A DNA stretch of 42,541 nucleotides. Source: Lachnospiraceae bacterium. Lineage in GTDB: Bacteria; Bacillota; Clostridia; Lachnospirales; Lachnospiraceae. How positions within the stretch are numbered: the stretch's first letter is position 1; each line of letters begins with the position of its first letter. Where the stretch lies: contig JAGBCB010000030.1 of the NCBI GenBank assembly GCA_017938145.1, positions 1 through 42,541 of the forward strand, given 5' to 3'. Made by a program: the position numbers and the translations under genes. Shown piece after piece: positions 8,392 through 42,541 of this stretch. Below the pieces are notes generated by a model. The model saw only the letters and a list, made by a program, of their open reading frames with translations, did no database searches and had not been told where the DNA came from.

Positions 8392-8470
8392 AAATGGTAA
8401 AATATATAAATGAGTTTTGCTATATAGATATTCCGTTTTAATCAAAAATGTTTATAAAGGGGTAAACAAT

Positions 8471-10555
8471 ATGAATTACGACGAGAAGAAATTTGCCGCC
8501 AGTGCAAATAAAAAAACAATGGGAATGTGGCTTGCAATGTTAGTGGTATTATCTGTTGCATATGCTATTGAGATAGTGAAAGGTTTAAAATCTCCAACCT
8601 ACTTTTTGATTATGGAACTTATTGCATGGGTTCCGTTTATTATAGGTCTGATTGTAGTAAAGAAGCAGGGCTGGCATTCTAAGTTGTATCATAATATTGT
8701 CGGATTTGGCTATGGATTCTTTTACTTATATATTATGGCAACATCTCCGGGTACATTGGCATTTACATACATCTTGCCGTTGGTAAGTATGTTTGTTATT
8801 TACAAGAACCGTAATTTTATTATCCGTTGCGGTATTGCCAGTGTGGCGGTTCTTATCTTTTCTATCGTTAGGAATTTTCTGAACGGAATGAATACAGCAG
8901 CGGATGTATCTAACTACGAAATTCAGTTCGGAATGATTTTATTCTGTTTTATCGGTTATATTGTTGCCATCAATCACATGAAAAATCATGATGATGCATT
9001 GGTGGGCTCCATTCAGGCGAACTTAGACAGGGTTATTACTACGGTTGACCAGGTAAAATCAGCCAGTGATGAAGTGGTTGACGGTGTTACCGTTGTCCGC
9101 GAATTATCGGAGGAGAATAAAGAAAGTGCTCAGGATGTTGTAAACGGCATGGAAATCCTGATTGATAAGAGTGATGAACTGGGCGGTAAGATTGATTCTT
9201 CCATGGATATGACCAGAGATATTGACCAGCAGGTAAGCAATGTAGCAGGTCTTGTGGAACATATGGTGGAAATCAGCAAAAAGTCTGCAGAACATGCAGA
9301 AAGCAGCTATTCCGAATTAAAGAATGTGGTAGAAGCCACCAACACTATGGCAAGATTATCTTCCGAAGCAGAGGTTATTTTAAATGAGTTCCGTCATCAG
9401 TTTGAAAAAGTAAAGCAGGAAACAGGAACTATCGAAAACATTTCCTCCCAGACCAATCTTTTAGCCTTAAATGCATCTATCGAAGCGGCAAGAGCAGGCG
9501 ATGCAGGCCGCGGCTTTGCGGTAGTTGCTGACGAAATCAGAAACTTAAGTACAGGCACACAAAATTCTTCCACCAGCATTATGGAAGCTTTAGGAAACCT
9601 GGAGGAAATCTCCGGTAAGATGACAGAATCTATTTCTACCATTCTCAAGTTAATTGGTGAAAATCTGATAACCATGCAGGGAGTTAACGAAAGCGTCGGA
9701 ACCATTGCAGAAGATTCCAAGCAACTGGGTGACGAAGTGCAGGTAGTAGATACTGCCATGAAGCAGGTGGAAAGCGCCAACAAAAACATGGTGGATAACA
9801 TGCAGCAGGTGCAGGATATTATGGTGGACATGGCAACCGGTATTAAGGAGTCCGAGTCTACTACAGTTACCATGATGAATAAATACGATGAAACTGCCCG
9901 CAATGTAATTAAGATTGAGCAGGTAGTGGGCCGCCTGGTAGAAGAACTGGGCGAAGGCGGATTTATGAGTCTGGCGGACATTACTCCTGGCATGAAGGTA
10001 ATTCTTGTGGATAAAAAGCAGGGTAAGGAATGTCATTCCGAGGTAGTAGATGTTACAGATAACAGTGTTGCCATTTCTGCAACAACGCAAATGGAAACAT
10101 TCCTGGAAGCATATGCGGCAAAGCATCCGTTTGAAATTCAGATTGTTGTAAACAACACGGTTTATATCTGGGAAGGCATAGACATTAGCCGTAAGGTAAT
10201 GCGTGGTACCTATCAATTAAAGCTGGTTGACAGTCCAAAGGTTTTAAACAGAAGACGCCATCCAAGACTTAGTATAAATAACGAATGCCTGATTACATTA
10301 AAGGGACAAACATTCGGGGGAAGAATGGTAAATATCAGTGCCGGAGGATTTGCTTTTAAGAGTACTGTTTCAAATTTTGCAGACTGCGTTGGTGCAACCG
10401 TGGAATTGCTGATTAAAGAACTGGATGTTTTAAATGGCAGAACATTAACCGGTGTTGTAATCCGCTCCACAGACAATAAAGGAAATTATATTGTAGGCGG
10501 AAGATTACTGGAAGATGATATGGATATTATGAATTATGTAAATTTAAGAGTATAA
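8471..10555 (+). CDS. Membrane chemoreceptor fused to YcgR-type PilZ module
   Basis: A 694-residue protein in three parts. Residues about 15-175 hold five or six membrane helices with short loops and no large outside sensor domain. Residues about 190-490 are a methyl-accepting signalling coiled coil with the conserved hairpin tip near residues 322-365 ([19 protein letters not shown] and [10 protein letters not shown]). Residues about 497-692 form a YcgR-like unit: a PilZN-like barrel, then PilZ with RRRHPR (about 594-599) and NISAGG (about 621), the c-di-GMP signature. The protein should couple c-di-GMP level, or a membrane state, to CheA/CheW. No che genes are nearby. The start at 8471 has AAAGGGG upstream. 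Followed by its own terminator, it stands alone. Confidence 0.9.
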
Positions 10556-13301: not shown

Positions 13302-14198
13302 ATGGGAAGAAACATTATTGATGATGATTTTATAGGACGCCTGGAAACCCTGGGATTGTGGCTGAAAAGCCAGATGACCGGATATTTCGGCGGCAACCAT
13401 AAAACAAATGCTTATGGCAGTACGGTGGAATTTGCAGACTACCGGGAATATACTCCCGGGGATGATTTGCGCCGGATTGACTGGAACATGTACGGCCGGT
13501 TTGATAAATATTTTATCCGCCTGTTTACCGATGAGCGTCAGATGCACAACCAGATATTGATTGACGGTTCCGCTTCCATGGAGGATGGAGAGGGGAAGGC
13601 TGACTATGCCCTGAAGGTGGCGGCTGCCCTGGGATTTTTGTCCGTACAGGGTATGGACCGTACTTCCATGAAAATGATGAAAGGGGATTCTTTAGTTAAT
13701 GTCGGTCAGAGAATTACAGGAAAGGAATCCTTCTATGCCACTGTTAATGAATTGGAAGAGGTAACCTTTGAAGGTGGTGCGGATATCAGCGCTGCGGTAA
13801 AGAACAATCCGGAAACCGGTTTTGATGACGGACTTACCGTATTGATATCCGACTTCTTTACGGAAGCCGACTGGAAGCAGGCAGTGGATTATTTGTTATA
13901 CAAAAAGAGAGAAGTGCTTTTGGTACAGGTGGTTACTCCTGCAGAGGTCAGTCCGGATTATTACGGCCGGATGCAGCTGGTGGATGCCGAAGCAGTGGAT
14001 ATTGATGACAGAAAGAATATGCGGATGCGTATTACAAAAAGCGAATATAAGGCATATTTACAGGCACTTTCCGACTATCTGGAGGATATGAAGCAGTTCT
14101 GCCGCTCCAGAAACGTGGGTTATGTGCGGGTAAATACCGCCAATCCGATAGAAAAAGAGTTGTTGAATCAACTATATGAAACGGAGGCGATACGATGA
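13302..14198 (+). CDS. DUF58 domain protein (MoxR partner)
   Basis: A 298-residue protein with the DUF58 signature: EFADYREYTPGDDLRRIDW followed by the VWA-like segment LIDGSASM. DUF58 proteins are cytoplasmic or membrane-associated partners of MoxR ATPases and carry a degenerate VWA fold; here the D-G-S-A-S sequence preserves a metal-site-like pattern. GDGLTVLISDFF fits the later strand of the same fold. It starts 11 bases after the MoxR gene and overlaps the next gene by four bases (ATGA), so all three are translated together. Confidence 0.9.
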   Translation: MGRNIIDDDFIGRLETLGLWLKSQMTGYFGGNHKTNAYGSTVEFADYREYTPGDDLRRIDWNMYGRFDKYFIRLFTDERQMHNQILIDGSASMEDGEGKADYALKVAAALGFLSVQGMDRTSMKMMKGDSLVNVGQRITGKESFYATVNELEEVTFEGGADISAAVKNNPETGFDDGLTVLISDFFTEADWKQAVDYLLYKKREVLLVQVVTPAEVSPDYYGRMQLVDAEAVDIDDRKNMRMRITKSEYKAYLQALSDYLEDMKQFCRSRNVGYVRVNTANPIEKELLNQLYETEAIR

Positions 14199-17100
14199 GT
14201 TTTCTTAATCCTGCAGGTTTATGGGGACTTCTTGGTATCCCCGCGTTGATTTTAATTTACATAATTAAGCCGAAGTTTCTGGAAAAAAAGGTAACCAGTA
14301 CCTTTATCTGGAAGCTGAGCCAAAAATATCAGAAGAAAAAACTTCCGTGGCAGATTACCAATCTGCTGCTGTTTGTGATGCAGTTATTGATTATTACCGG
14401 CATAAGTCTGGGCTTGGCAAGACCGGTTATGATTACCAAAGACGGTGCAGCGGAAAAAATAGTGATTATGGATGCTTCCGCCAGTATGCTGGCAGATACA
14501 GGAAGCGGTTCCTGTTTTGAAAGGGCAAAGTCAGAACTTTCCGATTTGGCGGATGCTATGGAAAGCTACGGAAAAATGTCAATTATCTTGGCAGAAACCG
14601 AAAGCCGGGTGCTGGTAGAACGTTCCGGCTCCGAACAGGACATCAAAGCGATGGCAGAAACACTTTCCTGTTCCTTTGGCGAGGCTGATTTGCCGGGGGC
14701 TTTTGCTTTAGCAGAGGAAATGCTCAAAGAGAATCCGGAGGCTGCGGTGTATTTAATTACCGATAAAGCTTATGAAAATGCAGGAAACGTCCAGGTAATT
14801 AATGTGGCAGAAGAAACTGCTTGGAATGTTGCCATTAGTTCCCTGGAAGCGAAAAAAGCGGAAAACAGAGAGCTTTATTTTGAAACAGAAATTACTTCCT
14901 ACGGTATGGATATGGCGGCTGCCGTAGTGCTGTATGTGGATGATGTGTTAGCTGATGCGCAGCTGGTAAGCCTTTTATCCGATGTTCCGACGACAGTGGA
15001 ATTTACGGATCTGGGAATCCGGCAGTATGAGTCTGCAAGAGTATACGTGGAAGCAGCGGATGCGCTGACCTTAGACAATGAATTTTGGACCCTGGCTGAG
15101 ACGAAAGAAGTGTATGATGTTTTACTGGTCAGCGAAGAACCAACCTTTTTGGAAACCGCATTGCTGACCTTTGATAATTTACGGATTACGGTAGTGGCAT
15201 CCTTTGATGAACTGGACCAGGGCGATCAATTTATGCAGGACGGTTCCACCATCGAGGAAATTCCGAGTACCGGTTACGATTTATATGTATATGATAAAGT
15301 GATGCCGAAATCCCTCCCAGGGGATGGGGCCGTCTGGATGATTTGTCCGGAAAAGGTTCCAAAGGGTGTTACCTTTAAATTGGGTGATGTTGTAACCGGG
15401 GAAGCGTATCTTGAGGCGGCACCGGATTCCGGTACGGAACTGTTTGCGGAAATCAGCAGGGAAGTTGATGTAAATGAAGTATATGTCAACGAGTATCTGG
15501 ATATTTCTTCCGCCCTTGGTTTCGAAACCCTTTATACCTGTAACGGAGCACCGGTGATTTTGGCCGGCGAAGCAGAAAATGCCCGGGCGGTGTTGTTCGC
15601 TTTTGATTTAAGTGCATCCAACCTGCCACTGCGTATTGCATATCCGGCGCTTGTTTATAATATGGTACAGTATTCCCTGTGTCCGGTGTTAAAAGATACC
15701 TCGTATGAAGTAGGGGATGTGGTAACCATTCATAAAGGTAACGGTGCAGTGCTGACATCAGTAAGTTCCGGGCAACCGGGTGCGGTGGCGGATACTTATG
15801 TCCGTATGCCGGTAAGCTTTACCGCAAAAGAGCCAGGAATTTATACGGTAACCCAGATGAGGTCTGATGATTCTTCCAAGCAGGCCCGGTACTTCGTTGG
15901 TATTCCGGCCGGAGAAAGTAATATTACTGCGGCGGGAACTATGCTTCCGGAGCTTGGACAGACCGGAACAGAGGTTAATTACGAAAAGGAAATCACCCGC
16001 TGGGTTGTTATTTTACTCGTGGTGCTGATTCTTGCAGAATGGCTGTTGCAGTATCGGGAAAAGTTTACGTTAAATAAAAAGCTTTCCCTTGCACTTCGGC
16101 TGGTAATTGTGGCAATCCTTATTGCATTGCTGGCGGATGTGAAGATATCCCGGGAAAAAGATGAGATTAACACCATTATTCTGGCGGATATGTCTGCCAG
16201 TGCAACGGATTCCTACGGAGCAGTGCATACTTATATCAATGAATTTGCATCCATGGCCGGAGAAAAGAACCGCATTGGAGTGGTTACTTTCGGAAAGGAT
16301 TTCATCTATACGGCAGAACTTAAGGAGAACGGAGCGGATGTGATGTCTGCCCTGGCAGAAGGAGAGGCGGTTCCTCATGTGGGGGCTACCAATCTGGAAG
16401 AAGCGCTGTATTATGCAGAATCCTTGCTGAACGACAGGGAAAACCAAAGAATCATTATTTTATCCGACGGGATACAAACTGACGGCGATGCCCTGGCAGC
16501 AGCCAAGGCAATGGCAGAGCGGGGCGTACAGGTGGATGCGGTGTGCATTCCTACCAGAGCTGTGGGCTTTGAAATGCAGGTAATGAGTCTTTCCCATCCT
16601 CAGAGTTTAAGTATGGGGGAAGAAACAGAACTGAAGGTTGTGGTACAAAGCAACCATGATGCGTCGGCGGAGCTTCGCTTTATGGATAACGGCGCTGTGG
16701 TATCCAAGAGAATCGTAGATATAAAAGAAGGACTGTCGGAATTTACTTCCGAATATACCCCTTCTTCTCTTGGTATTCATGAAATTTCGGTACGGCTGGT
16801 GCCGGTACAGGACAGCGCAAAAGAGAATAATACCTACTATTCCTGGCTGGAAGTTGCCGGAAAGGGAAACATTTTATTGATAGACGGCACAGGAAGAGAA
16901 GCAGCCGGCTTGAAATACATGCTTTCCGAGGAATACAGTGTAACAGAAATTGAGCCGGAAGAAGCAGAAGGGTACATGAACCAGCTGGCAGCTTATCAGG
17001 GTGTCATTTTGATGAATGTGTCCAATGCAGATTTACCGGAAGGCTTTGATAAGGCGTTGGAAACCTATGTAGAAAAATACGGTGGTGGTGTGCTTACCAC

Positions 17101-18517
17101 CGGAGGCAGCAATACCTATGCTTACGGTAGTATGACGGACACCGCATTTGAAGACCTGCTTCCGGTCACTTTGGAGCTTGGCGAGGAACAGGTAGTTGCC
17201 ATGATGCTTGTGGTGGATACTTCCAGCAGTATGCAGGGATTAAATCACCGGATGGCAATCCAGGGCACCATGCAGTGTATCGAAGCATTGGAAGAAAAGG
17301 ATTATGTGGGTGTGTTAACCTTTGACAGAACCGCCCATGTAATTTATGACCTTGCTTCCATGGAGCAAAAGGATGATATTCTGGAAGCGGTAGAGGCGAT
17401 TGAGCTTGGACGGGGTACTTATATGACGGATGCCACCAGAGAAGCATACAATCAGTTAAAGGATTTTGAAGCAGATAAAAAACATGTCATTATTTTATCC
17501 GATGGTGAACCGCAGGATTCCGGTTACATCCGTGTGGTAAAACAGATGGCAGCCAACGGCATCACGGTTTCCGCCATTGCGGTGGGCCAGGGGGCTGACC
17601 GTAGAATCATGGAAACCATTGCTCAAAACGGTAACGGTAATTACTATTATGCAATCACGGTAAAAGATTTGCCGGATATTATGGTAGATGAAGTGGTCTC
17701 TGCCACAGACTCTTACCGCCATACCGGAACCTTCCCGATCTCTGTGGCAAGTTATTCCACATTGCTTGGGGATTTGGATGCCAATAATCTTCCGACTATG
17801 TCCGGTTATACTACTACTTTCCTGAAAAAGGGAGCAGAGCAGTTTTTAACCGTGGCTGACGGAGAACCTCTGTATGTACAGTGGGACTACGGCTCCGGCC
17901 GGGTAGGCAGCTTTACTGCAGATTTGCGGGGCAATGATTCGGAGCAGCTGTTTGCTTCAGAAGACGGTATACAGTTAATTAGAAACATGGTTTCCGGGCT
18001 GATTCGTACCGATGGAAAGGTAACAGCACTGGGACTTGAGCTGACACCGGGGAATCAGACTGCCGGGGTGGAAATTTCCGCAGCTCTTTCCGGAAAGGAA
18101 ACGTTACAGGTATCGGTTCTTTCTCCGGACGGCAGTGAGGAAACGGTGGAAACGGTGCTGACTACAAAGGGAACTTATCGCGGAACCTTTGCAACGGACT
18201 CCTCCGGTGTTTATACCGTTACGGCAACCCACTTGGGTGCGGACGGAAAGCTTCTTGATTTTGCCCAGGCGAATATGGCATCCTCCTATTCCAAGGAGTA
18301 CGAATGCTTTGGGGAAACTACAGGAGAAGAACTTTTGCTTAGTGTATGTGAAGCAACCGGAGGCAAAATGGCCTATACCGCAGCAAATGTAATGGAGTTT
18401 ACCGGAAAACTGATGAAGCAGATGCTGGATCCTGCTGTTCCGTTGTTAATTGTACTTATGGTGATTGTTCTTGCTGAGATAGCAATAAGAAAATTCCGAT
18501 TAAGGAGACGAAGATAG
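14195..18517 (+). CDS. Giant BatA-type membrane protein with three VWA domains
   Basis: A 1440-residue protein. It begins with an aerotolerance-type N-terminus (membrane helices about 4-24 and 54-76), then VWA1 with DASAS at 93-97. After an Ig-like outside region, membrane helices at about 603-620 and 635-655 lead into VWA2 (DMSAS at 665). A GATase-like segment follows (ILLIDGTGREAAGLKYML, GGGVLTTGGSNTYAYG), then VWA3 (DTSSS at 1008, then LSDGEPQD). A last helix lies at about 1412-1432 before a basic tail. Related Clostridia usually carry these as two proteins of about 600 and 850 residues, so this looks like an end-to-end fusion at about residue 625. The ATG overlaps the DUF58 stop. Probable work: an envelope complex driven by MoxR. 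Confidence 0.85.
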   Translation: MSFLNPAGLWGLLGIPALILIYIIKPKFLEKKVTSTFIWKLSQKYQKKKLPWQITNLLLFVMQLLIITGISLGLARPVMITKDGAAEKIVIMDASASMLADTGSGSCFERAKSELSDLADAMESYGKMSIILAETESRVLVERSGSEQDIKAMAETLSCSFGEADLPGAFALAEEMLKENPEAAVYLITDKAYENAGNVQVINVAEETAWNVAISSLEAKKAENRELYFETEITSYGMDMAAAVVLYVDDVLADAQLVSLLSDVPTTVEFTDLGIRQYESARVYVEAADALTLDNEFWTLAETKEVYDVLLVSEEPTFLETALLTFDNLRITVVASFDELDQGDQFMQDGSTIEEIPSTGYDLYVYDKVMPKSLPGDGAVWMICPEKVPKGVTFKLGDVVTGEAYLEAAPDSGTELFAEISREVDVNEVYVNEYLDISSALGFETLYTCNGAPVILAGEAENARAVLFAFDLSASNLPLRIAYPALVYNMVQYSLCPVLKDTSYEVGDVVTIHKGNGAVLTSVSSGQPGAVADTYVRMPVSFTAKEPGIYTVTQMRSDDSSKQARYFVGIPAGESNITAAGTMLPELGQTGTEVNYEKEITRWVVILLVVLILAEWLLQYREKFTLNKKLSLALRLVIVAILIALLADVKISREKDEINTIILADMSASATDSYGAVHTYINEFASMAGEKNRIGVVTFGKDFIYTAELKENGADVMSALAEGEAVPHVGATNLEEALYYAESLLNDRENQRIIILSDGIQTDGDALAAAKAMAERGVQVDAVCIPTRAVGFEMQVMSLSHPQSLSMGEETELKVVVQSNHDASAELRFMDNGAVVSKRIVDIKEGLSEFTSEYTPSSLGIHEISVRLVPVQDSAKENNTYYSWLEVAGKGNILLIDGTGREAAGLKYMLSEEYSVTEIEPEEAEGYMNQLAAYQGVILMNVSNADLPEGFDKALETYVEKYGGGVLTTGGSNTYAYGSMTDTAFEDLLPVTLELGEEQVVAMMLVVDTSSSMQGLNHRMAIQGTMQCIEALEEKDYVGVLTFDRTAHVIYDLASMEQKDDILEAVEAIELGRGTYMTDATREAYNQLKDFEADKKHVIILSDGEPQDSGYIRVVKQMAANGITVSAIAVGQGADRRIMETIAQNGNGNYYYAITVKDLPDIMVDEVVSATDSYRHTGTFPISVASYSTLLGDLDANNLPTMSGYTTTFLKKGAEQFLTVADGEPLYVQWDYGSGRVGSFTADLRGNDSEQLFASEDGIQLIRNMVSGLIRTDGKVTALGLELTPGNQTAGVEISAALSGKETLQVSVLSPDGSEETVETVLTTKGTYRGTFATDSSGVYTVTATHLGADGKLLDFAQANMASSYSKEYECFGETTGEELLLSVCEATGGKMAYTAANVMEFTGKLMKQMLDPAVPLLIVLMVIVLAEIAIRKFRLRRRR

Positions 18518-35626: not shown

Positions 35627-37273
35627 ATGAAGTATCAAACCATAGTAACAATTAAAGAGTCAGAGAAAGCAACGGTAGAACTGGCAGCGATAGAATTGTT
35701 TGTCGGTCCTGTAATTGTAAAGCGATTAAAGGGAGGTAATCCCGAGATTTACCGGTTACTTTCTATCCAGAGCAATCCGCATATTCCGCAGATTTATGCT
35801 GTAGAAGAGCAGGAGAATGAATTGCTCATTGCGGAAGAATACGTGGATGGCGAAAGCCTTTCCGAGCATTTGCAGAAGAACCTGCTTTCCGATGAGCAAA
35901 AGTTAAATTATGCCCTGCAGCTTTGCGAAGCTGTGGGCTTTTTGCATGCCCTGAATCCGTCGGTAATCCATCGGGATATCAAGCCTTCCAATATTTTAAT
36001 CAATGGAAAAGGTGAGTTGAAGCTGATTGATTTTGACGCTTCCAGATATTATAAGGAAGCTCCAAGCAGCAGTGACACCAGACTTCTTGGTACGGTGGAA
36101 TATGCACCTCCGGAGCAGTTTGGTTATTCCCAGACCGATGTCCGCAGCGACATTTATTCCATGGGGGTAGTGTTTCACGAAATGCGTCCGACAGAGAATA
36201 AAAGATTAGCGGAGCAGTGGGAGAAAATTGCAGAAAAGTGTACCAGCTTTGACCCGAAAAACCGCTATCAGAGCGTGGCGGAATTAAAGCGGGAACTGGA
36301 AAAACTGGCAGATTGGAAAAAAAGTAGAAGAGGGAAAATCGCAGCATGGATTGGTGGTGCGGCTGTTCTTTTGGCGGTGGCAGTGCTGGCGGTAGTAATG
36401 TGGCACGGACAGGGTGCAGCAAAGGATGTTGATGGGGCGAATATGACGACGGTACCTACAAGTGTGCCTACAGATGCTCCGACGTTATTACCAACCAATG
36501 TGCCGACATTGACGCTAACAAATATTCCAACGGAAACTCCAACACCGGAGCCGACGGTCACACCGGCCGATATGCCTATACCGACACGTATAGCTACCGT
36601 AACGTCTTCGAGCGGTAATATAGGGAATAATTTCATAAGTATGGGCTCGGAAATAGCAGATGAATTATTAAAGCAGAGCTTTTACATTGATACCTTCTAC
36701 AAAGGATTAGACACCGGCGCAGACTTTATGCAGTACTCTACTCTTTACGAAGGAAAAGAAGTTTCGTTTACAAAAATCCGGGTGGAGAATTTGGAAACCG
36801 GAGAATATTTTTTGGTTCCGGAAGATTTATTTTACAACGAAAACAATGTGGTTCACATTAAGCGTAGTTATATGCTGGAATGGGCGGAATCCTGTTACCG
36901 GTTGGATATAGAATATGAAGACAGTGCAAACGGACGTCGCGGTTCTATGACAACGCATTTGATGATTTACGATGGTGACAAGGTGGCAGAGAATGCCCAA
37001 CTTTTCGACAATAATTATCTGGAATATTATTACGAATATGACGCTTGCGTACATACTATTTTAGCAAATGATATCGTTGGCAGATTTAAAGATACCGGAG
37101 AGTACAGGTTGCTGGAAAACGGACGGGTCATTGAATTTGATGCGGATTTTTTGAAACAACATGTTGTGTTAGGTGGAAGCGGAGAATTTTTTCTTACCTT
37201 GGAATTGGAGAATGGTCGCAGGCAACAGTTGGCAATCCGGTATCTGTCCGGAAAACCATCCTATGTATATTAG
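35627..37273 (+). CDS. Membrane Ser/Thr protein kinase with X2/Ig-like outside domains
   Basis: A 548-residue protein. Residues about 1-215 form a protein kinase: VIVKRL (probable lysine), the catalytic loop VIHRDIKPSN with Asp117, DFDASR in place of DFG, and GTVEYAPPEQF. The N-lobe is short with no clear glycine loop. A basic stretch leads to one membrane helix (about 237-258), then a Thr/Pro linker (about 275-325) and an outside region (about 340-548) that I read as two X2/Ig-like repeats (segments around FLVPEDLFY...VVHIKRSYM and YRLLENGRVIEFDADFL). So kinase inside, binding part outside. The start at 35627 follows GAGGAAGCGA; an earlier GTG at 35591 lacks a site. The small regulator follows 10 bases on. 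Confidence 0.85.
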   Translation: MKYQTIVTIKESEKATVELAAIELFVGPVIVKRLKGGNPEIYRLLSIQSNPHIPQIYAVEEQENELLIAEEYVDGESLSEHLQKNLLSDEQKLNYALQLCEAVGFLHALNPSVIHRDIKPSNILINGKGELKLIDFDASRYYKEAPSSSDTRLLGTVEYAPPEQFGYSQTDVRSDIYSMGVVFHEMRPTENKRLAEQWEKIAEKCTSFDPKNRYQSVAELKRELEKLADWKKSRRGKIAAWIGGAAVLLAVAVLAVVMWHGQGAAKDVDGANMTTVPTSVPTDAPTLLPTNVPTLTLTNIPTETPTPEPTVTPADMPIPTRIATVTSSSGNIGNNFISMGSEIADELLKQSFYIDTFYKGLDTGADFMQYSTLYEGKEVSFTKIRVENLETGEYFLVPEDLFYNENNVVHIKRSYMLEWAESCYRLDIEYEDSANGRRGSMTTHLMIYDGDKVAENAQLFDNNYLEYYYEYDACVHTILANDIVGRFKDTGEYRLLENGRVIEFDADFLKQHVVLGGSGEFFLTLELENGRRQQLAIRYLSGKPSYVY

Positions 37274-37283
37274 GAGAAGAAAT

Positions 37284-37706
37284 ATGGAAAAAAGCACGGA
37301 ATTATTACAATCCGAATTGAAAAACGCCAAGAATCCGGCGGATTTTTTCGAGAAGAATATGCAGGTGTTGAAAGGAAAAACGGTACAGGAATTCCTGATG
37401 GAGCTGTTAATTAAATATAATTTGGAACGGAAAGACGTGGTTGTAAAATCCGGCTTGACCGGTACCTATCCGTATCAGATTTTTGACGGAAAAAAGACGG
37501 CCGGCAGGGATAAATTGATTCAGCTGGCCTTTGGATTTCCGCTGTCTTTGGACGAAACTCAGCACCTTTTGAAGTATGGAGGACATAACGAACTTTACGT
37601 TAAAGTGAAGCGGGATGCCTATGTGATGTTTGCCCTGGAAAAGAAATATGACATCCAAAAATTAAATGAACTTCTCTTTGAGTGCGGCGAAAAAACTTTT
37701 GAATAA
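37284..37706 (+). CDS. Small helix-turn-helix-like protein 1 (kinase neighbour)
   Basis: A 140-residue protein. The middle part (YPYQIFDGKKTAGRDKLIQLAFGFPLSLDETQHLLKYGG, given here in pieces: YQIFDGKK, RDKLIQLAFGFPLS, ETQHLLKYGG) matches a variant XRE-like helix-turn-helix type common in Lachnospiraceae beside protein kinases. The ends are helical. AGGAGA lies 8 bases before the ATG, 10 bases after the kinase stop, so the two share a transcript. It could bind the TTATGC palindrome downstream or be a kinase target; neither is shown. It is a paralogue of the next gene, which starts 114 bases after its stop. Confidence 0.7.
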   Translation: MEKSTELLQSELKNAKNPADFFEKNMQVLKGKTVQEFLMELLIKYNLERKDVVVKSGLTGTYPYQIFDGKKTAGRDKLIQLAFGFPLSLDETQHLLKYGGHNELYVKVKRDAYVMFALEKKYDIQKLNELLFECGEKTFE

Positions 37707-37715
37707 TTGCCCAAA

Positions 37716-37759
37716 TTATGCTGCGGGCATAAGACTTTTCGGGTACTTTTGCTTAAAAT
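37716..37759 (+). promoter_or_regulatory. Palindromic operator and -10 box, copy 1
   Basis: TTATGC (37716-37721), a 5-base spacer and GCATAA (37727-37732) form a perfect palindrome followed by GACTTT. A TAAAAT -10 box lies at 37754-37759, 21 bases after the palindrome, with no good -35. The same block occurs before the zinc-ribbon gene. Confidence 0.65.
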
Positions 37760-37820
37760 AGACTTGTACATGAATGGCATAGTGATGCTTCATGTAAGAG
37801 CAAGTAAGAGGTGCCGGAAA

Positions 37821-38270
37821 ATGGGGAAAGACACAGAAAAGTTAATGAATGAATTAAAGCTTGCAAAAGGCTTAGGGGAATTTCTTGAAGAAAACACAGA
37901 TGAATTTGAAGAACTTCCGTTAACAGACATGTTAGCGGAAATGCTGAGAAAGTACGACAAAAACAGGATTGATGTCATCAAAGCTGCCCGTTTGGATTTT
38001 ACCTACGGATACCAGATTTTTGACGGAAAGAAGAAACCGCGCCGGGAAAAGCTGTTACAGCTTGCCTTTGGCTTCCCGCTTTCTGTGGAAGATACCAACC
38101 GTATGCTTCGGGCAGGCGGTGTTAGTGGCCTGTATGTCCGCAGTAAAAGAGATGTGGTTTGTATGTATTGTCTGCAGCAGGGTACATCTCTGGATGAGTG
38201 CAATACCTTATTGTATCAGATGGGTGAGGAGACTCTGATTAAAGAAGATTATGACAAAAAAGAGAAATAA
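37821..38270 (+). CDS. Small helix-turn-helix-like protein 2 (paralogue)
   Basis: A 149-residue protein clearly related to the previous one: YGYQIFDGKK, REKLLQLAFGFPLS and the AGGVSGLYVRSKRD region align with YPYQIFDGKK, RDKLIQLAFGFPLS and GGHNELYVKVKRD. The C-terminus is longer and ends with charged residues (KEDYDKKEK). The ATG at 37821 is preceded by AAGAGGTG; the in-frame region back to 37707 includes the operator and promoter and is not translated in my reading. Its own promoter and terminator mean it can be expressed apart from the kinase. Probably a DNA-binding or phosphate-receiving regulator. Confidence 0.65.
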   Translation: MGKDTEKLMNELKLAKGLGEFLEENTDEFEELPLTDMLAEMLRKYDKNRIDVIKAARLDFTYGYQIFDGKKKPRREKLLQLAFGFPLSVEDTNRMLRAGGVSGLYVRSKRDVVCMYCLQQGTSLDECNTLLYQMGEETLIKEDYDKKEK

Positions 38271-38284
38271 GATGTGAATTTTGG

Positions 38285-38310
38285 AGAGCTCGCAGATGCG
38301 GGCTCTTTTT
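38285..38310 (+). terminator. Intrinsic terminator after HTH-like gene 2
   Basis: GAGCTCGC (38285-38292) pairs with GCGGGCTC (38298-38305) with one U-G pair, followed by TTTTT. Confidence 0.8.
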
Positions 38311-38349
38311 GTATGGAAAAAAGAAAGAAAATTGTCGAATTGCGTGAAA

Positions 38350-38394
38350 TTATGCTGGGAGCATAAGACTTTACAAGAGAAAAAGTCTTATAAT
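38350..38394 (+). promoter_or_regulatory. Palindromic operator and promoter, copy 2
   Basis: TTATGC (38350-38355), a 5-base spacer and GCATAA (38361-38366), with the same flanks (AAAT before, GACTTT after) as copy 1. A perfect TATAAT lies at 38389-38394, 22 bases after the palindrome. A second inverted repeat, AAGACTTT-N9-AAAGTCTT (38365-38389), fills the spacer region only in this copy. No good -35 exists, so an activator at the palindrome is possible. Confidence 0.7.
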
Positions 38395-38447
38395 TGGATT
38401 AGTGAAATTATGGTAGAAAATTAAATTTATTAGAATGTGAGGGTATT

Positions 38448-40454
38448 ATGAAATTTTGTGAAGAATGTGGAGCAAAATTGGAAGATGATGCGAAATTTTG
38501 CGAGGAATGCGGTGCGGCAGTAGAGGACTTTACAGAAGGAACGAAGGTTGAAGATAGCATGTCAGAAGATGGTCAGAAAGATGCTATGGATGAATCTCTG
38601 GAGGTATTCGTGCGTTTCTGTGAAGAGTGCGGAGCAAAGCTGGAAGCGGGAGCGATGTTCTGTGAGGAATGTGGTACGGCAGTAGAGGAACTTGCAGAAG
38701 CAGCTGAACCTGTCACTGATAAACAAGAAGTTTTTCCGGAAGTGATGCAGGAAGAGAACATATTTGTGCGTTTTTGTGAAGAGTGCGGAGCAAAGTTGGA
38801 AGCAGGAGCAAAGTTCTGTGAGGAATGTGGCGCAGCTGTAGAGGAACTTGTAGAAGAGGAACTTCAAGAAGAAATTTCAGAGGAAACCTTGGAAGAATCG
38901 GTAGAAGAAAATCCAGTAGAAGAGAACGTTTGGGATGAACCAGCCGAAGAAGAATTAGAGAGTGTTGCCGAAGAGCCGGATACGTTTGTATTTGCTGGTG
39001 AAGAACCTACGGAAGAACCGGAAGTGGCTTTTGCTGAAACTGAAATTATTCCGGAAGAGGCGCTAGAAGAACTTCCAGAAGAGGAAGCAGTGGAGGAAGT
39101 CCAGGAAGAGGCAGCAGAAGAGATACTTGTAGAAGAGGAACCGATTGGAATGAAATTCTGTGGGGAATGCGGAGCACGGTTAGCGGACGCAGCAGAATTG
39201 GATAAGGTTGCTATTAACTTGGAGAAAGAGCAACCAAAAGTAGCGGAAGATTTATCGGAGAAAATATCAGAAAAACCTGAGCTAGAGACCAAAAGCAAAT
39301 TGAAGGCAGGATGGATTATTCTTGCAGGGGGATTGCTTATAGCCATTGTTTTGTTTGTGTTGCTTGGAAGTGGTATCTTACAGCAAAATGGCAAGCAACA
39401 AGAAATAAATAATGGTGATAATTTTGGGGTTAAAGAAACGTTGGTGCCGACTATGACCGTAGCACCAACGGAAACAGTAGCGCCGGCGGCAACAGCAACG
39501 TCAAAGCCGACGGCAACGGTAACGCCAACATCAATACCGACGCCAACGGCAACAGCAACGCTGAAACCGACAAATACGCCGGTACCAACGGCAACAGCAA
39601 CACCGACACCAACGAATACACCGGTGCCAACGGCGACATCAATACCGAAGCCAACGAATACACCGGTGCCAACGGCGACATCAACACCGAAGCCGACGAA
39701 TACACCGGTGCCAACGGCAACAGCAACGCCGAAACCGACGAATACGCCAGTCCCAACGCTGACTGCAGATCAAGAAGCATATTATCGCACAACTGCTCCA
39801 GAGTGGAGGGATGACCCGACAGACTCCGATGAAATAAAGAAGATTAAGCAATCACTTCGAGACGGTGAGTATTCGCATTATTGCTTTAAAGACAGACTTG
39901 CAGGAGCAAGTCTTATTACACAAATGGCCTGGCTGAGTAATCCGGAAAATGAGTTGTTATCCATTAGGTTACACTCGCTTCAGACCGAGGAATGGATTAC
40001 AATTGATAAAAAGTATTACGAGGTTAATGGAGATATTATACAAATCGTGAAGGAATATATAGATTCTCTCGCGGATGGATATTATTGTATGTATTATACG
40101 GTTCATGTTCCTGAACTGGGAGGACAGATTGACCATAGGCAAACCTGGTATGTTGCTCAAAATGATATATATCAGGAAAGGAAGATGTGGTTATATTATC
40201 CATATCTTGAATATAAGGAAAATTACAAAAGTGTAAATGCGGTTTTAAGCCCGGATTCCACAAAGGTGATTTCTAAGTTGAAGTGGAGTGATGGTTCTGA
40301 AGTTAATAAATCATTATATGAGATTCTTTATGATGGGCGGGCAATCAGACTTTCAGCAGAACTGTTACAGCAATGTGCGACAACGGATAAGTGGAGCTTT
40401 TGGGTTCAGAGTACGGATGGAAGTGAAGCGGATTTGAATATAAATAAACAGTAA
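38448..40454 (+). CDS. Membrane protein with repeated zinc ribbons, acidic domain and X2/Ig-like outside repeats
   Basis: A 668-residue protein with no known name. Three near-identical zinc ribbons (FCEECGAKLE...FCEECGAAVE; starts near residues 2, 62 and 106) are followed by a Glu-rich stretch and a fourth, half-lost ribbon (FCGECGARL near 233) lacking its second Cys pair. One membrane helix lies at about 284-305, then a Thr/Pro linker with 14-residue repeats (about 330-440) and two X2/Ig-like repeats (about 480-570 and 575-665, e.g. YYEVNGDIIQIVKEYIDSL and YEILYDGRAIRLSAELL). The outside part parallels that of the kinase at 35627. GTGAGGG lies before the ATG. The next gene follows 48 bases on without terminator. 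Confidence 0.8.
   Translation: MKFCEECGAKLEDDAKFCEECGAAVEDFTEGTKVEDSMSEDGQKDAMDESLEVFVRFCEECGAKLEAGAMFCEECGTAVEELAEAAEPVTDKQEVFPEVMQEENIFVRFCEECGAKLEAGAKFCEECGAAVEELVEEELQEEISEETLEESVEENPVEENVWDEPAEEELESVAEEPDTFVFAGEEPTEEPEVAFAETEIIPEEALEELPEEEAVEEVQEEAAEEILVEEEPIGMKFCGECGARLADAAELDKVAINLEKEQPKVAEDLSEKISEKPELETKSKLKAGWIILAGGLLIAIVLFVLLGSGILQQNGKQQEINNGDNFGVKETLVPTMTVAPTETVAPAATATSKPTATVTPTSIPTPTATATLKPTNTPVPTATATPTPTNTPVPTATSIPKPTNTPVPTATSTPKPTNTPVPTATATPKPTNTPVPTLTADQEAYYRTTAPEWRDDPTDSDEIKKIKQSLRDGEYSHYCFKDRLAGASLITQMAWLSNPENELLSIRLHSLQTEEWITIDKKYYEVNGDIIQIVKEYIDSLADGYYCMYYTVHVPELGGQIDHRQTWYVAQNDIYQERKMWLYYPYLEYKENYKSVNAVLSPDSTKVISKLKWSDGSEVNKSLYEILYDGRAIRLSAELLQQCATTDKWSFWVQSTDGSEADLNINKQ
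39564..39757 (+). repeat. 42-base in-frame tandem repeat (Thr/Pro linker)
   Basis: About 4.6 copies of a 42-base unit encode KPTNTPVPTATATP-like 14-residue steps. The unit is likely to vary in copy number between strains by slippage, changing the linker length between membrane and outside domains. Confidence 0.9.
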
Positions 40455-40502
40455 TCATCCGTGCGAAAAAGGACAATAGAGAAAAACTATTAGGAGGACA
40501 TT

Positions 40503-42362
40503 ATGGGAGTAACAAAAAAAGCGTTATTGGGCAAAGAACTGATATTTACAGAGGAGATGGACTTGTTTAATTCCCTCCGTAAAAAATATATACTTTTGTC
40601 CAAGGAAGCAAGACAAAAGGCAGAAGAAGAGTACGATGGCAAAATAACCGGCTATTCCGAATACCGAAGCTATACGAAAAGTATTATGGACGAGCTTTTT
40701 GAGCAATATCTCACGGTTGGTGTACATGATATCATAGGTTATGATATTAATGATATTGACGAGGTTGTGCTGCGGGAAGAGTTCGAAAAGGATTTTGGGT
40801 GTACCTATCGGGAGGAGATTGACCATATCGTGGGACAACTTGCGCAAATCGATGTGGAGCAGGCTGTTTTAGATGAAGAACGAAAAGAAGCGATAGAGGA
40901 TGCCAGATTGGTAGATGGAGCTCTTGTTAGCGGTAATGCGATTGATGTAATAGGCTCAAAACTGGGAATGACGTTAATGAACGCAGTGGCTAAAGGTGGC
41001 ACGGCACTGGTAACGGGAGGCGTTCGGGCAATAGAAAAACGCGGTGCAGAGAAGGACCGTATTGCTATTTTTGAAAATCCTTTCACTAAGGAAAAATTGT
41101 TGGATGGAATTGAACTTGACGTATATCTGTTGCACCGGGTTGTTGCCCGCCTTATTAACGAGAGAACCGAGAAGGAATATTTTTATTATGCATCAGCAGA
41201 AAATATTGACTGCTTTGAACCTGTATGCAGAAATATTTTACATGGCAATTTTAAGGATGCGGAGCAACCAAATTTGGAGCGTGAGCAGATTCATAATGTG
41301 ATTATGATGAATCCATATGAACTTCGTGTATATTGCTATATCATGGAGGAAAACGGAGGTATCACTGCAGAACTCAGAGAGTTGTTGGAATATTTGTATG
41401 TAGACAAGGCATCTATGGCAGATAGTTATCTGGAATGGCACTATAATCTGAGTGATTACACTACCTACGAAAGCATACTTGAATTTGAAAAGGTAGTGCT
41501 GGCAGAAATGGAACAATTTGGCGTGAGTAAATGTAATTACTATGAAGCTCTGGTTGAACGCAGAGAGGTCCTTTATAAGGAAAGACGTACCTTCCATGGT
41601 CGTGTTTACGATACAATCGAAGAACGTGATGATATGGAGAAGCAGTTTAATGAGTTTATGGACGTGGTACTTGATGAGATGAGCTTAGATGAATTGCTTG
41701 AAAAATATGATAGTAGCTACAATGAGTCTCTGCATGTGAATAATCAGGAAGATGCCCGCGCCATGATTATGACATATATCCGCGTGAAAACAGAGGATTT
41801 CAAATCTTCTGATGAGGTGATGCCTTATATTGCTTATGCACAACAGAAGAAGATAGAGCATAAGTTGGAAACTTCAGAATTAGTAACTGTATTTGAAGAT
41901 AAGCGTAAGGCATTGGCCGTGAAGGAAAAGATTGGCGCTATTATTGCCACAATAAAAGGAAAACTGCGGACGCTTGCCTGGGCAATTAAGGAACGTAGTA
42001 AGGGACTGGTAGAGAAACTGCCAATTGGAAAGAAAAAAGGTAAAAAGAAAGAAATCATAGAGGATTCTGTAGTTCAGGAAGTTAGCGATGTAACCTTAGA
42101 GCAGGAGCCGGAAGTGGAAAAGGTTGAACTGCAAGAAGATACGGTTTTACAGCAGGAAGTTAAGGAGGAAACCCCACAGACACAACCAGAAGTAGAGGAA
42201 GAAATTGTATCGGTGAAACAGCCGGAAATCCTGCAACAACCGGTAGTGGTAGAACCGCAGCAGGAAATTCAGGAGGCACCGGCAACAAAAGTATGTCCAC
42301 AGTGTGGCGCAACTGTAAAAGCAACCGGAAAGTTCTGTGCAAAGTGTGGTCATAGATTTTAA
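40503..42362 (+). CDS. Large protein with C-terminal zinc ribbon, family unknown
   Basis: A 619-residue protein. Residues 1-480 are mostly helical and charged, with one moderately hydrophobic stretch (about 150-180, VIGSKLGMTLMNAVAKGG, ALVTGGVRAI) that may touch the membrane. A basic patch (KKKGKKKE, about 513-520) is followed by a Glu/Gln/Pro/Val-rich linker and a C-terminal zinc ribbon (CPQCGATVKATGKFCAKCGHRF split as CPQCG and FCAKCG, about 597-617). I recognise no family for the large N-terminal part. AGGAGGA lies before the ATG and no terminator separates it from the preceding zinc-ribbon membrane gene, so the two should share a transcript. It is probably the cytoplasmic worker of this module. 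Confidence 0.75.
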   Translation: MGVTKKALLGKELIFTEEMDLFNSLRKKYILLSKEARQKAEEEYDGKITGYSEYRSYTKSIMDELFEQYLTVGVHDIIGYDINDIDEVVLREEFEKDFGCTYREEIDHIVGQLAQIDVEQAVLDEERKEAIEDARLVDGALVSGNAIDVIGSKLGMTLMNAVAKGGTALVTGGVRAIEKRGAEKDRIAIFENPFTKEKLLDGIELDVYLLHRVVARLINERTEKEYFYYASAENIDCFEPVCRNILHGNFKDAEQPNLEREQIHNVIMMNPYELRVYCYIMEENGGITAELRELLEYLYVDKASMADSYLEWHYNLSDYTTYESILEFEKVVLAEMEQFGVSKCNYYEALVERREVLYKERRTFHGRVYDTIEERDDMEKQFNEFMDVVLDEMSLDELLEKYDSSYNESLHVNNQEDARAMIMTYIRVKTEDFKSSDEVMPYIAYAQQKKIEHKLETSELVTVFEDKRKALAVKEKIGAIIATIKGKLRTLAWAIKERSKGLVEKLPIGKKKGKKKEIIEDSVVQEVSDVTLEQEPEVEKVELQEDTVLQQEVKEETPQTQPEVEEEIVSVKQPEILQQPVVVEPQQEIQEAPATKVCPQCGATVKATGKFCAKCGHRF

Positions 42363-42411
42363 TTGAATGATATTGGAAGATATAGGGAGGAGCCTGCAGA
42401 GTGATATGATT

Positions 42412-42454
42412 CCCCTTAAGTAGACAAGGTAAATAACCAAATCTACTTAAGGGG
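42412..42454 (+). promoter_or_regulatory. Hairpin masking the transposase ribosome site (right IS end)
   Basis: CCCCTTAAGTAGA (42412-42424) and TCTACTTAAGGGG (42442-42454) pair perfectly over 13 bases. The 3' arm contains the AAGGGGG ribosome site of the following transposase. The IS terminus should lie near 42410. The layout copies that of the left IS end although the sequences differ. Confidence 0.6.
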
Positions 42455-42462
42455 GATTTTTT

Positions 42463-42541
42463 ATGTATCGAAAATATACGCCAGAGGAAAAAATAAAAAT
42501 TGTCAGGGGATATATAAAGGGCGAATACTCTTGGAGTGAAA
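42463..42541 (+). CDS. IS3-type transposase OrfA, N-terminal fragment (runs off right edge)
   Basis: Twenty-six codons are visible, starting MYRKYTPEEKIKIVRGYIKG, typical of the helix-turn-helix start of IS3/IS150-type OrfA proteins. The sequence differs from the left-edge transposase, so this is a second element. AAGGGGG lies 8 bases upstream of the ATG within a hairpin. The remainder is outside the window. Confidence 0.7.
   Translation, partial: MYRKYTPEEKIKIVRGYIKGEYSWSE

What the first reader, a model, noticed from the sequence alone, without database searches (positions are those of the whole stretch)
35627..42362. Candidate undescribed envelope-sensing module: kinase, two HTH-like proteins, zinc-ribbon membrane protein, zinc-ribbon cytoplasmic protein
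Five genes in a row on one strand. Seen: a Ser/Thr kinase with membrane helix and outside domains, two paralogous HTH-like genes, a membrane protein with three and a half zinc ribbons inside and the same outside layout, and a 619-residue zinc-ribbon protein of no recognised family. Known: membrane Hanks-type kinases with outside domains sense wall fragments. Inferred: kinase and zinc-ribbon protein bind the same ligand outside, and phosphorylation is passed to the zinc-ribbon or HTH partners.
Basis: partly seen in the sequence, partly recalled or inferred. Interest (0 to 1): 0.75.

Follow-up and report, generated by a model that had tools for sequence, protein, structure and literature searches.

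The report
Membrane kinase with DNA-binding partner regulator
Gut Clostridia carry a gene pair, a membrane protein kinase and a small DNA-binding protein, that appears to switch on nearby genes, many for membrane proteins, through one shared DNA signal; no description of it was found in what was searched here, and the signal makes it directly testable.

Summary
The five genes exist as described, but the module differs. Core: a Ser/Thr kinase gene beside a small Cro/C1-fold protein ("HTHfam"; here hth1, hth2). A kinase lies within two ORFs of HTHfam in 14 of 18 and 38 of 61 loci; none among 356 control genes. An N-terminal Thr is kept in 81 of 85 members. A 17-bp palindrome, TTATGCTG-N-CAGCATAA, precedes hth2, the zinc-ribbon membrane gene and a third unit past an insertion sequence. 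It recurs at HTHfam loci of other Clostridia: with a -10 box, 18 sites in 77 loci versus 0 in 400 kb control and mean 0.01 for 200 permuted palindromes. The -10 box starts 21 nt downstream in 13 of 14 genus sites and 17 of 18 distant sites: centre near -42, an activator position. Some zinc-ribbon membrane genes are targets; the 619-residue protein is variable cargo. Best reading: the kinase controls HTHfam (perhaps via the Thr), which activates a local regulon rich in membrane proteins. Linkage, site and spacing are computed results; binding, activation and phosphorylation are inferred. A new variant of kinase-regulator pairs.

The parts
35627..37273 (+). Membrane Ser/Thr kinase (548 aa): cytoplasmic kinase domain, one TM near residue 240, P/T-rich linker, outside part
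   Evidence: Pkinase 1.1e-33; TM by hydropathy; catalytic Lys, HRD, Asn, DF(D) present, no glycine in the P-loop stretch and DFD in place of DFG; outside model low confidence
37284..37706 (+). hth1, Cro/C1-fold HTHfam protein (140 aa), 10 nt after the kinase gene; conserved Thr5
   Evidence: AF2 pLDDT 93; Foldseek to DdrO and 434 Cro; Thr in 81 of 85 members
37716..37732 (+). Operator 1 (TTATGCTGCGGGCATAA) upstream of hth2; -10 box TAAAAT at 37754-37759
37821..38270 (+). hth2, paralogue of hth1 (149 aa), behind operator 1
   Evidence: 45% identical to hth1; orthologues in L096 and L097 also preceded by the operator
38283..38310 (+). Terminator-like hairpin after hth2
   Evidence: MFE -17.1 kcal/mol, z -4.8, T-run
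38350..38366 (+). Operator 2 (TTATGCTGGGAGCATAA) upstream of the zinc-ribbon membrane gene; -10 box TATAAT at 38389-38394 (22 nt)
38448..40454 (+). Zinc-ribbon membrane protein (668 aa): 3.5 zinc ribbons inside, TM near residue 290, P/T linker, outside part weakly related to kinase outside parts of relatives; probable regulon member
   Evidence: Zn_Ribbon_1 4.9e-24; TM; outside similarity
40503..42362 (+). 619-aa protein with C-terminal zinc ribbon; variable cargo, not a core part
   Evidence: no family beyond the ribbon; match in 4 of 392 order genomes including own, no kinase or HTHfam beside the other three
42389..42401 (+). Left half of a terminator split by an insertion sequence; right half is on contig C39
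42402..42541 (+). Left end of an insertion sequence; six identical copies of this 140-base end in the genome; contig break

Best explanation
This is one member of a family of kinase-regulator pairs for which I found no description. A single-pass membrane Ser/Thr kinase with an outside sensor part controls a small Cro/C1-type DNA-binding protein encoded beside it. The DNA-binding protein binds a 17-bp palindrome (TTATGCTG-N-CAGCATAA) centred near -42 and activates transcription of a local set of genes, many for membrane or secreted proteins: here hth2 (an amplifying second copy), the zinc-ribbon membrane protein with the 619-aa protein, and, past an insertion sequence, a Cys-rich lipoprotein-like protein with a second Lgt. 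The likely link is phosphorylation of the conserved N-terminal Thr. Shown here by computation: gene linkage, the repeated palindrome, its spacing to the -10 box, Cro/C1 fold, Thr conservation. Inferred: that HTHfam is the binder, that it activates, that the kinase is active and acts on the Thr, and the outside ligand.
For: Kinase within 2 ORFs of HTHfam in 14 of 18 and 38 of 61 loci (three contigs are in both sets), 0 kinases in 356 control genes. Palindrome with -10 at 21 nt (<=1 mismatch): 18 sites in 17 of 77 loci, 0 in 400 kb control; 200 permuted palindromes mean 0.01, max 1. Spacing 21 nt in 13 of 14 genus sites and 17 of 18 distant sites; spacing was not used to choose the sites. Best -35 match at usual spacing is 1-3 of 6 bases in 30 of 32 sites, 4 in two. 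Own genome: three exact sites of TATGCN5GCATAAGACTTT, all in this locus once C18 and C39 are joined, and one 2-mismatch site on C71. Loci with an operator at <=1 mismatch: recognition-helix class YxYQIF 14 of 59, other 2 of 10, YGYKLL 0 of 8, control 0 of 20. Thr in 81 of 85 members, never Ser. Targets include ZnR membrane genes in L152 (exact core), L141 (2 mismatches), L144 (3) and kinases in L083 and L087 (3 each). Of the genes within 300 nt of sites with <=2 mismatches, 8 of 11 have a TM segment against 124 of 356 control ORFs. Cro/C1 fold.
Against: No experiment. Operators were found in only 17 of 77 loci at <=1 mismatch and 23 at <=2. Without the -10 condition, <=2 mismatches, control stretches also have 5 sites, and a looser form (TTATGCN5GCATAA, 2 mismatches) is hardly enriched: 57 in 814 kb versus 21 in 400 kb. 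No site was found before the window's kinase-hth1 pair. 0 of 8 YGYKLL loci is too few to prove class specificity. Short XRE genes near some loci could be the binder. Thr5 sits at the start of the first modelled helix and might be structural. The kinase P-loop lacks glycine and DFG reads DFD, so activity is uncertain. 24 of 85 HTHfam genes had no kinase within 3 ORFs, some at contig ends. Cargo in one relative includes GTPases, not only envelope genes.
Confidence: 0.66

Rival explanations
1. HTHfam is a repressor or anti-activator: unphosphorylated protein blocks the promoters and the kinase relieves it.
For: Cro/C1 proteins are often repressors (established knowledge); hth2 itself lies behind the operator, as in autorepression.
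Against: The operator takes the place of a -35 element at a fixed 21 nt from the -10 box in 30 of 32 sites (13 of 14 and 17 of 18), and -35 matches are poor. Position -42 is the usual class II activator place (lambda cI at PRM, recalled).
Confidence: 0.15
2. The kinase is a pseudokinase or scaffold: the outside signal changes kinase shape, which releases or tethers HTHfam without phosphorylation; the N-terminal Thr is structural.
For: No glycine in the window kinase's P-loop stretch; DFG glycine kept in only 13 of 52 HTH-linked kinases; Thr5 starts the first modelled helix.
Against: Catalytic Lys in 47 of 52, HRD Asp 52 of 52, Asn 52 of 52, DFx Asp 52 of 52; Thr without Ser in 81 of 82 residues, the other Ala, fits a kinase site better than a helix cap.
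Confidence: 0.2
3. The island is an antiphage or stress-defence island and the kinase-HTH pair is its switch; the envelope link is secondary.
For: A relative carries three small AIG1/IRG-like GTPases in the island, with the operator upstream of two of them and of the gene just before the third; near sbcCD another has NERD-helicase, DUF87 and Uma2 genes. The site between trpS-HAD and sbcCD is variable.
Against: The window cargo is a ZnR membrane protein, a Cys-rich lipoprotein-like protein and Lgt; 8 of 11 close distant targets have a TM segment. PADLOC matches lie in the kinase domain.
Confidence: 0.15
4. Five-gene signalling module as first read: kinase and zinc-ribbon protein co-sense a ligand and phosphate passes to the zinc-ribbon proteins.
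For: Outside parts weakly related; zinc-ribbon genes enriched nearby.
Against: The zinc-ribbon gene sits behind the operator; the 619-aa protein occurs without kinase; membership varies in the nearest relatives.
Confidence: 0.05

Closest known systems
Two-component systems (histidine kinase plus response regulator), e.g. LiaRS
   Same: Membrane sensor kinase next to its own DNA-binding regulator and local envelope targets
   Different: Hanks-type Ser/Thr kinase and Cro/C1 protein; no histidine kinase or receiver domain matched in the five proteins
Hanks-kinase/regulator pairs such as PknH-EmbR and AfsK-AfsR (recalled, not looked up)
   Same: Ser/Thr kinase linked to a transcription factor it phosphorylates
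   Different: Those factors are SARP/FHA-type (recalled); here a 140-aa Cro/C1 protein with a conserved N-terminal Thr and a -42 palindrome shared across genera
PASTA kinases (PrkC/Stk1/PknB)
   Same: Membrane Hanks kinase with outside domains
   Different: No PASTA match; the window kinase lacks P-loop glycines and has DFD; the own genome has a separate kinase on C55 with glycine loop and DFG
HAAS-PadR dyads (PMC11237479, passages read)
   Same: Proposed alternative to two-component systems for envelope stress
   Different: No HAAS or PadR matched here; the sensor is a protein kinase
TerY-P triads (PMC11090510, passages read)
   Same: Ser/Thr kinase and zinc ribbon in one locus
   Different: No vWA or PP2C partner found; ribbon not fused to the kinase

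Membership tests
Cro/C1 (XRE) DNA-binding superfamily | HTH_3-like fold | tested here: met
   AF2 pLDDT 93; Foldseek 434 Cro, C.AhdI and DdrO domain TMt 0.69-0.78, but E 0.07-0.14 and no match at E <= 0.001; HTH_3 in 21 of 57 members, best 4.6e-8, not hth1 itself
PASTA kinase (PrkC/Stk1) | PASTA repeats and family score | tested here: not met
   NF033483 133 bits against cut-off 450; no PASTA match
Hanks-type Ser/Thr kinase | Pkinase domain with catalytic Lys, HRD, DFG Asp | tested here: met
   Pkinase 117 bits, cut-off 31.7; residues present
Hanks-type Ser/Thr kinase | Glycine-rich loop and DFG glycine | tested here: not met
   window kinase: no Gly in the loop stretch; DFD
Two-component system | Histidine kinase and receiver domain | tested here: not met
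   no such Pfam match in the five proteins
TerY-P triad | vWA plus PP2C plus kinase-zinc-ribbon fusion | tested here: not met
   none among the five proteins or the four C39 genes scanned
TcaA | Full-length family score | tested here: not met
   22.4 bits, cut-off 550, first 41 residues only
CBM_X2 outside domain | Score above Pfam cut-off | tested here: not met
   L096 kinase 19.8 bits and L097 kinase 12.8 versus 28.9; window proteins no match
Kinase-regulator phosphorelay | Kinase phosphorylates the regulator | not testable with these tools
   needs biochemistry

The most novel reading that the evidence does not exclude
A general signalling chassis of gut Clostridia, perhaps of Negativicutes too, comparable to two-component systems: Hanks kinases with exchangeable outside sensors, each paired with a Cro/C1 activator switched by phosphorylation of one N-terminal Thr and acting from a -42 palindrome shared across families, with zinc-ribbon membrane proteins as frequent outputs; duplicated pairs in one island use operators with different flanks for insulation.
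Probability: 0.45. Interest if true: 0.85.

Novelty: new variant of a known kind. Interest (0 to 1): 0.72.

Why it matters
What bacterial Ser/Thr kinases regulate is often unclear, because they seldom sit beside an obvious target (general knowledge, not searched). Here the kinase, its probable target with one conserved Thr, the DNA site and the output genes are all in view, in gut bacteria. One binding assay, one kinase assay and one reporter would decide the main steps. Zinc-ribbon membrane proteins are often annotated without function; some would gain a regulatory context.

Tried and rejected
Five-gene module: rejected for the 619-aa protein. Defence assignment from PADLOC: matches lie in the kinase domain only, apart from one weak match (E 0.027) of the 619-aa protein. 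PASTA, TcaA, TerY-P: membership tests failed. CBM_X2 as outside domain: suggestive, below cut-off; the outside model is poor (pLDDT 57.6) and its Foldseek list shows generic Ig-like and cadherin-like folds, so not claimed. Structure of the 619-aa protein: not attempted. The operator was not found in the YGYKLL class (0 of 8 loci), so that class, including the own-genome C67 pair, may use another site; none was identified from the four intergenic stretches printed. The long form of the motif (with GACTTT) in 397 family genomes, <=1 mismatch: 5 genomes; the four other than own had one hit each with other spacers, fewer than the 9 hits of the backward control, so the long form is not shared widely; only the core palindrome is. 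Literature: ten searches listed no paper on this pair by title or abstract start; three papers were read as passages. The library is open-licence PubMed Central only.

Caution on my own sets: alignment A6 was filtered to members with Thr at that column, so its 57 of 57 invariance is by construction; the unfiltered counts are 81 of 85 (3 gaps from short ORFs, 1 Ala) and 17 of 17. The 68 named loci were fetched with a recognition-helix pattern, so that helix is conserved there by construction; 7 of the 68 lost the HTH ORF in my ORF picking and were dropped. L080, L082 and L085 equal L134, L121 and L149; they are in both sets and were left out of the operator counts. The 77 operator loci include three YGYKLL loci. 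The site L083:3233 (3 mismatches) was added by hand to the 18 distant sites (without it 16 of 17). L163, one of the 17 operator loci, has no called HTH ORF. Symmetry of the outermost operator bases holds in 12 of the 18 distant sites only.
Full report
OBSERVATION. The kinase gene follows trpS and a HAD gene closely. hth1 begins 10 nt after the kinase stop, hth2 has its own start region, a terminator-like hairpin follows hth2, and the zinc-ribbon membrane gene and the 619-aa gene follow. The window ends inside an insertion sequence.

THE LOCUS CONTINUES. Contig C18 ends at base 42541. Its last 140 bases are one end of an insertion sequence that occurs six times in the genome. Contig C39 begins with the other end: reversed, its outer 40 bases match the C18 end at 30 positions. 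The flanks are ...GGAGCCTGCAGAG and GAGTGCAGGCTCTTTTT...; joined without the insert and one copy of GAG they form a terminator stem of at least 9 bp with three loop bases (MFE -21.3 kcal/mol, z -4.7). In a same-genus genome (G151, that of L096) trpS-HAD-kinase-hth1-hth2 and GIY-YIG-sbcD-sbcC lie on one contig, as the join predicts. Past the insert come the palindrome, a Cys-rich lipoprotein-like protein (by eye), an Lgt paralogue (PF01790 1.4e-33; the stronger Lgt match of the genome is on C55), a 90-aa protein and a GIY-YIG protein.

THE PALINDROME. TTATGCNNNNNGCATAAGACTTT occurs at 37716 and 38350 in the window and nowhere else there with up to 3 mismatches (0.10 expected; 1 of 100 shuffles reached 2). 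In the own genome a 22-base form (TATGCN5GCATAAGACTTT, up to 2 mismatches) has three exact matches, the third at C39:201, one 2-mismatch match on C71 and none for the backward control. Orthologous loci L096 and L097 carry related sites upstream of hth2 orthologues, a lipoprotein-like gene and a further HTH gene. G151 has eight copies in the island, each upstream of a gene, in two flank types that go with two kinase-HTH pairs. With the centre resolved, the site is TTATGCTG-N-CAGCATAA.

THE SITE IS SHARED ACROSS TAXA. In 77 HTHfam loci outside the genus (716 kb), the 14 core bases with at most 1 mismatch and a -10-like hexamer 21 nt downstream occur 18 times in 17 loci, against 0 in 400 kb of control stretches from eight HTHfam-bearing genomes, and a mean of 0.01 (maximum 1) for 200 permuted palindromes in the same loci; at most 2 mismatches: 26 sites in 23 loci versus 0; at most 3: 37 versus 2. 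The 17 loci fall in 15 clusters at 60% HTH identity, counting L163 (no called HTH) apart; the 70 loci with a called HTH make 47 clusters. By record title they include Pseudoflavonifractor, Diplocloster, Eisenbergiella, Hungatella and Subdoligranulum. HTHfam loci titled Selenomonadaceae were fetched too, but none of them is among the 17. Without the -10 condition the contrast is smaller (<=3 mismatches of 16 bases: 34 in 832 kb versus 5 in 400 kb). The outermost bases pair symmetrically in 12 of 18 distant sites.

THE SPACING. Sites chosen without regard to any -10 box have one exactly 21 nt downstream in 13 of 14 genus sites (12 with at least 4 of 6 matches; the other site has 22) and in 17 of 18 distant sites (at least 5 of 6 matches), where a random position scores 0.0049. 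The best TTGACA match at spacing 16-18 is 1-3 of 6 in 30 of the 32 sites and 4 in two. With -10 starting at -12, the operator spans -50 to -34, centre -42. From established knowledge this is where class II activators such as lambda cI at PRM bind. Binding by HTHfam is inferred from linkage and fold; the absence of the site from loci with the other recognition helix (0 of 8) fits but is a small sample.

THE REGULATOR FAMILY. hth1 is modelled at pLDDT 93, all helical; nearest solved folds are Cro/C1 proteins (DdrO, C.AhdI, 434 Cro; E 0.04 and up, none at 0.001; TM by target 0.69-0.78 for the domain-sized ones). Pfam sees generic HTH models in a part of the members (HTH_3 in 21 of 57); no family-specific Pfam or NCBIfam model matched. 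In 60 family genomes a match at E <= 0.001 is found in 22, own included, some of them weak or in longer proteins. The Thr near the N-terminus is present in 81 of 85 members. A related own-genome protein on C24, beside a vWA-like gene, lacks it.

THE KINASES. A kinase lies within 2 ORFs in 14 of 18 and 38 of 61 loci, on either strand. In 52 kinases near HTHfam the catalytic Lys is kept in 47, HRD Asp, Asn and DFx Asp in 52, the DFG glycine in 13. The loop stretch was printed for 22 of them; the window kinase and its genus relatives have no glycine there, some others have one or two. 30 of 69 kinases have one TM and an outside part over 150 residues (a few fetched twice); these parts vary (some LRR-like by eye).

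ZINC-RIBBON PROTEINS. ZnR membrane genes lie within 5 ORFs in 7 of 18 and 21 of 61 loci versus 6 of 156 control windows. Sites with a -10 box precede such genes in the window (operator 2), L152 (exact core, 158 nt), L141 (2 mismatches, 266 nt), L144 (3 mismatches, 43 nt) and perhaps L160 (2 mismatches, 748 nt). Kinase and ZnR outside parts are related in L084 (30.6% over 111 aa, E 8e-9, starting 15 residues past my TM cut) and between the L096 kinase and the window ZnR protein (30.7% over 75 aa, E 5.6e-4). The own genome has a second set on C67: ZnR-TM-DUF4352, XRE, HTHfam, kinase.

TARGETS AND CARGO. Of genes within 300 nt downstream of sites with at most 2 mismatches, 8 of 11 have a TM segment versus 124 of 356 control ORFs. 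The 619-aa protein matches 3 of 391 other order genomes (39%, 26% and a marginal 20% identity), with no kinase or HTHfam in the stretches read. In G151 cargo includes three AIG1/IRG-like GTPases; the operator is upstream of two of them and of the gene just before the third.

MODEL AND JUDGEMENT. Outside signal, kinase, HTHfam (possibly at Thr), activation from -42, membrane-protein and other outputs, with hth2 as amplifier. Linkage, palindrome and spacing are strong computational results; binding, direction and phosphorylation are inferences for the bench. Papers: PMC11090510, PMC11237479 and PMC7159879 were read as passages; none of those passages describes this pair.

Noticed in passing
G000:C67:15100-18400 (L011:5107-8370): Second kinase-HTHfam pair in the same genome with an XRE gene and a zinc-ribbon-TM-DUF4352 gene; no TTATGCTG-type operator at <=2 mismatches there.
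   Followed up: partly
L170:13714-16635 (same-genus genome G151): Three small AIG1/IRG-like GTPase genes within the island; the palindrome lies upstream of two of them and of the 78-aa ORF just before the third.
   Followed up: partly
L094:5076-6227: Macro domain (1.3e-41) and a HTHfam-like match in one protein.
   Followed up: no
L015:1321-2723 (G000:C24): HTHfam relative lacking the N-terminal Thr next to a vWA-like gene (by eye).
   Followed up: no
L038:298-1607 (G000:C39): Cys-rich lipoprotein-like protein followed by a second Lgt, both behind the operator: possibly a dedicated lipidation pair.
   Followed up: partly
window 42402-42541: Insertion sequence in the loop of a terminator; six identical copies of its left end, five on other contigs, so it is a likely cause of assembly breaks.
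   Followed up: yes
L171:1193-11207 (same-genus genome G152): NERD-helicase, DUF87 ATPase and Uma2 genes upstream of sbcD, suggesting the site is a variable island.
   Followed up: partly
L082:2-640: Partial protein with an FHA-like sequence (by eye, not tested) near a kinase-HTHfam locus.
   Followed up: no
window 8417-10555: Methyl-accepting chemotaxis signalling domain fused to a PilZ domain.
   Followed up: no
window 14195-18517: 1440-aa BatA/vWA protein.
   Followed up: no
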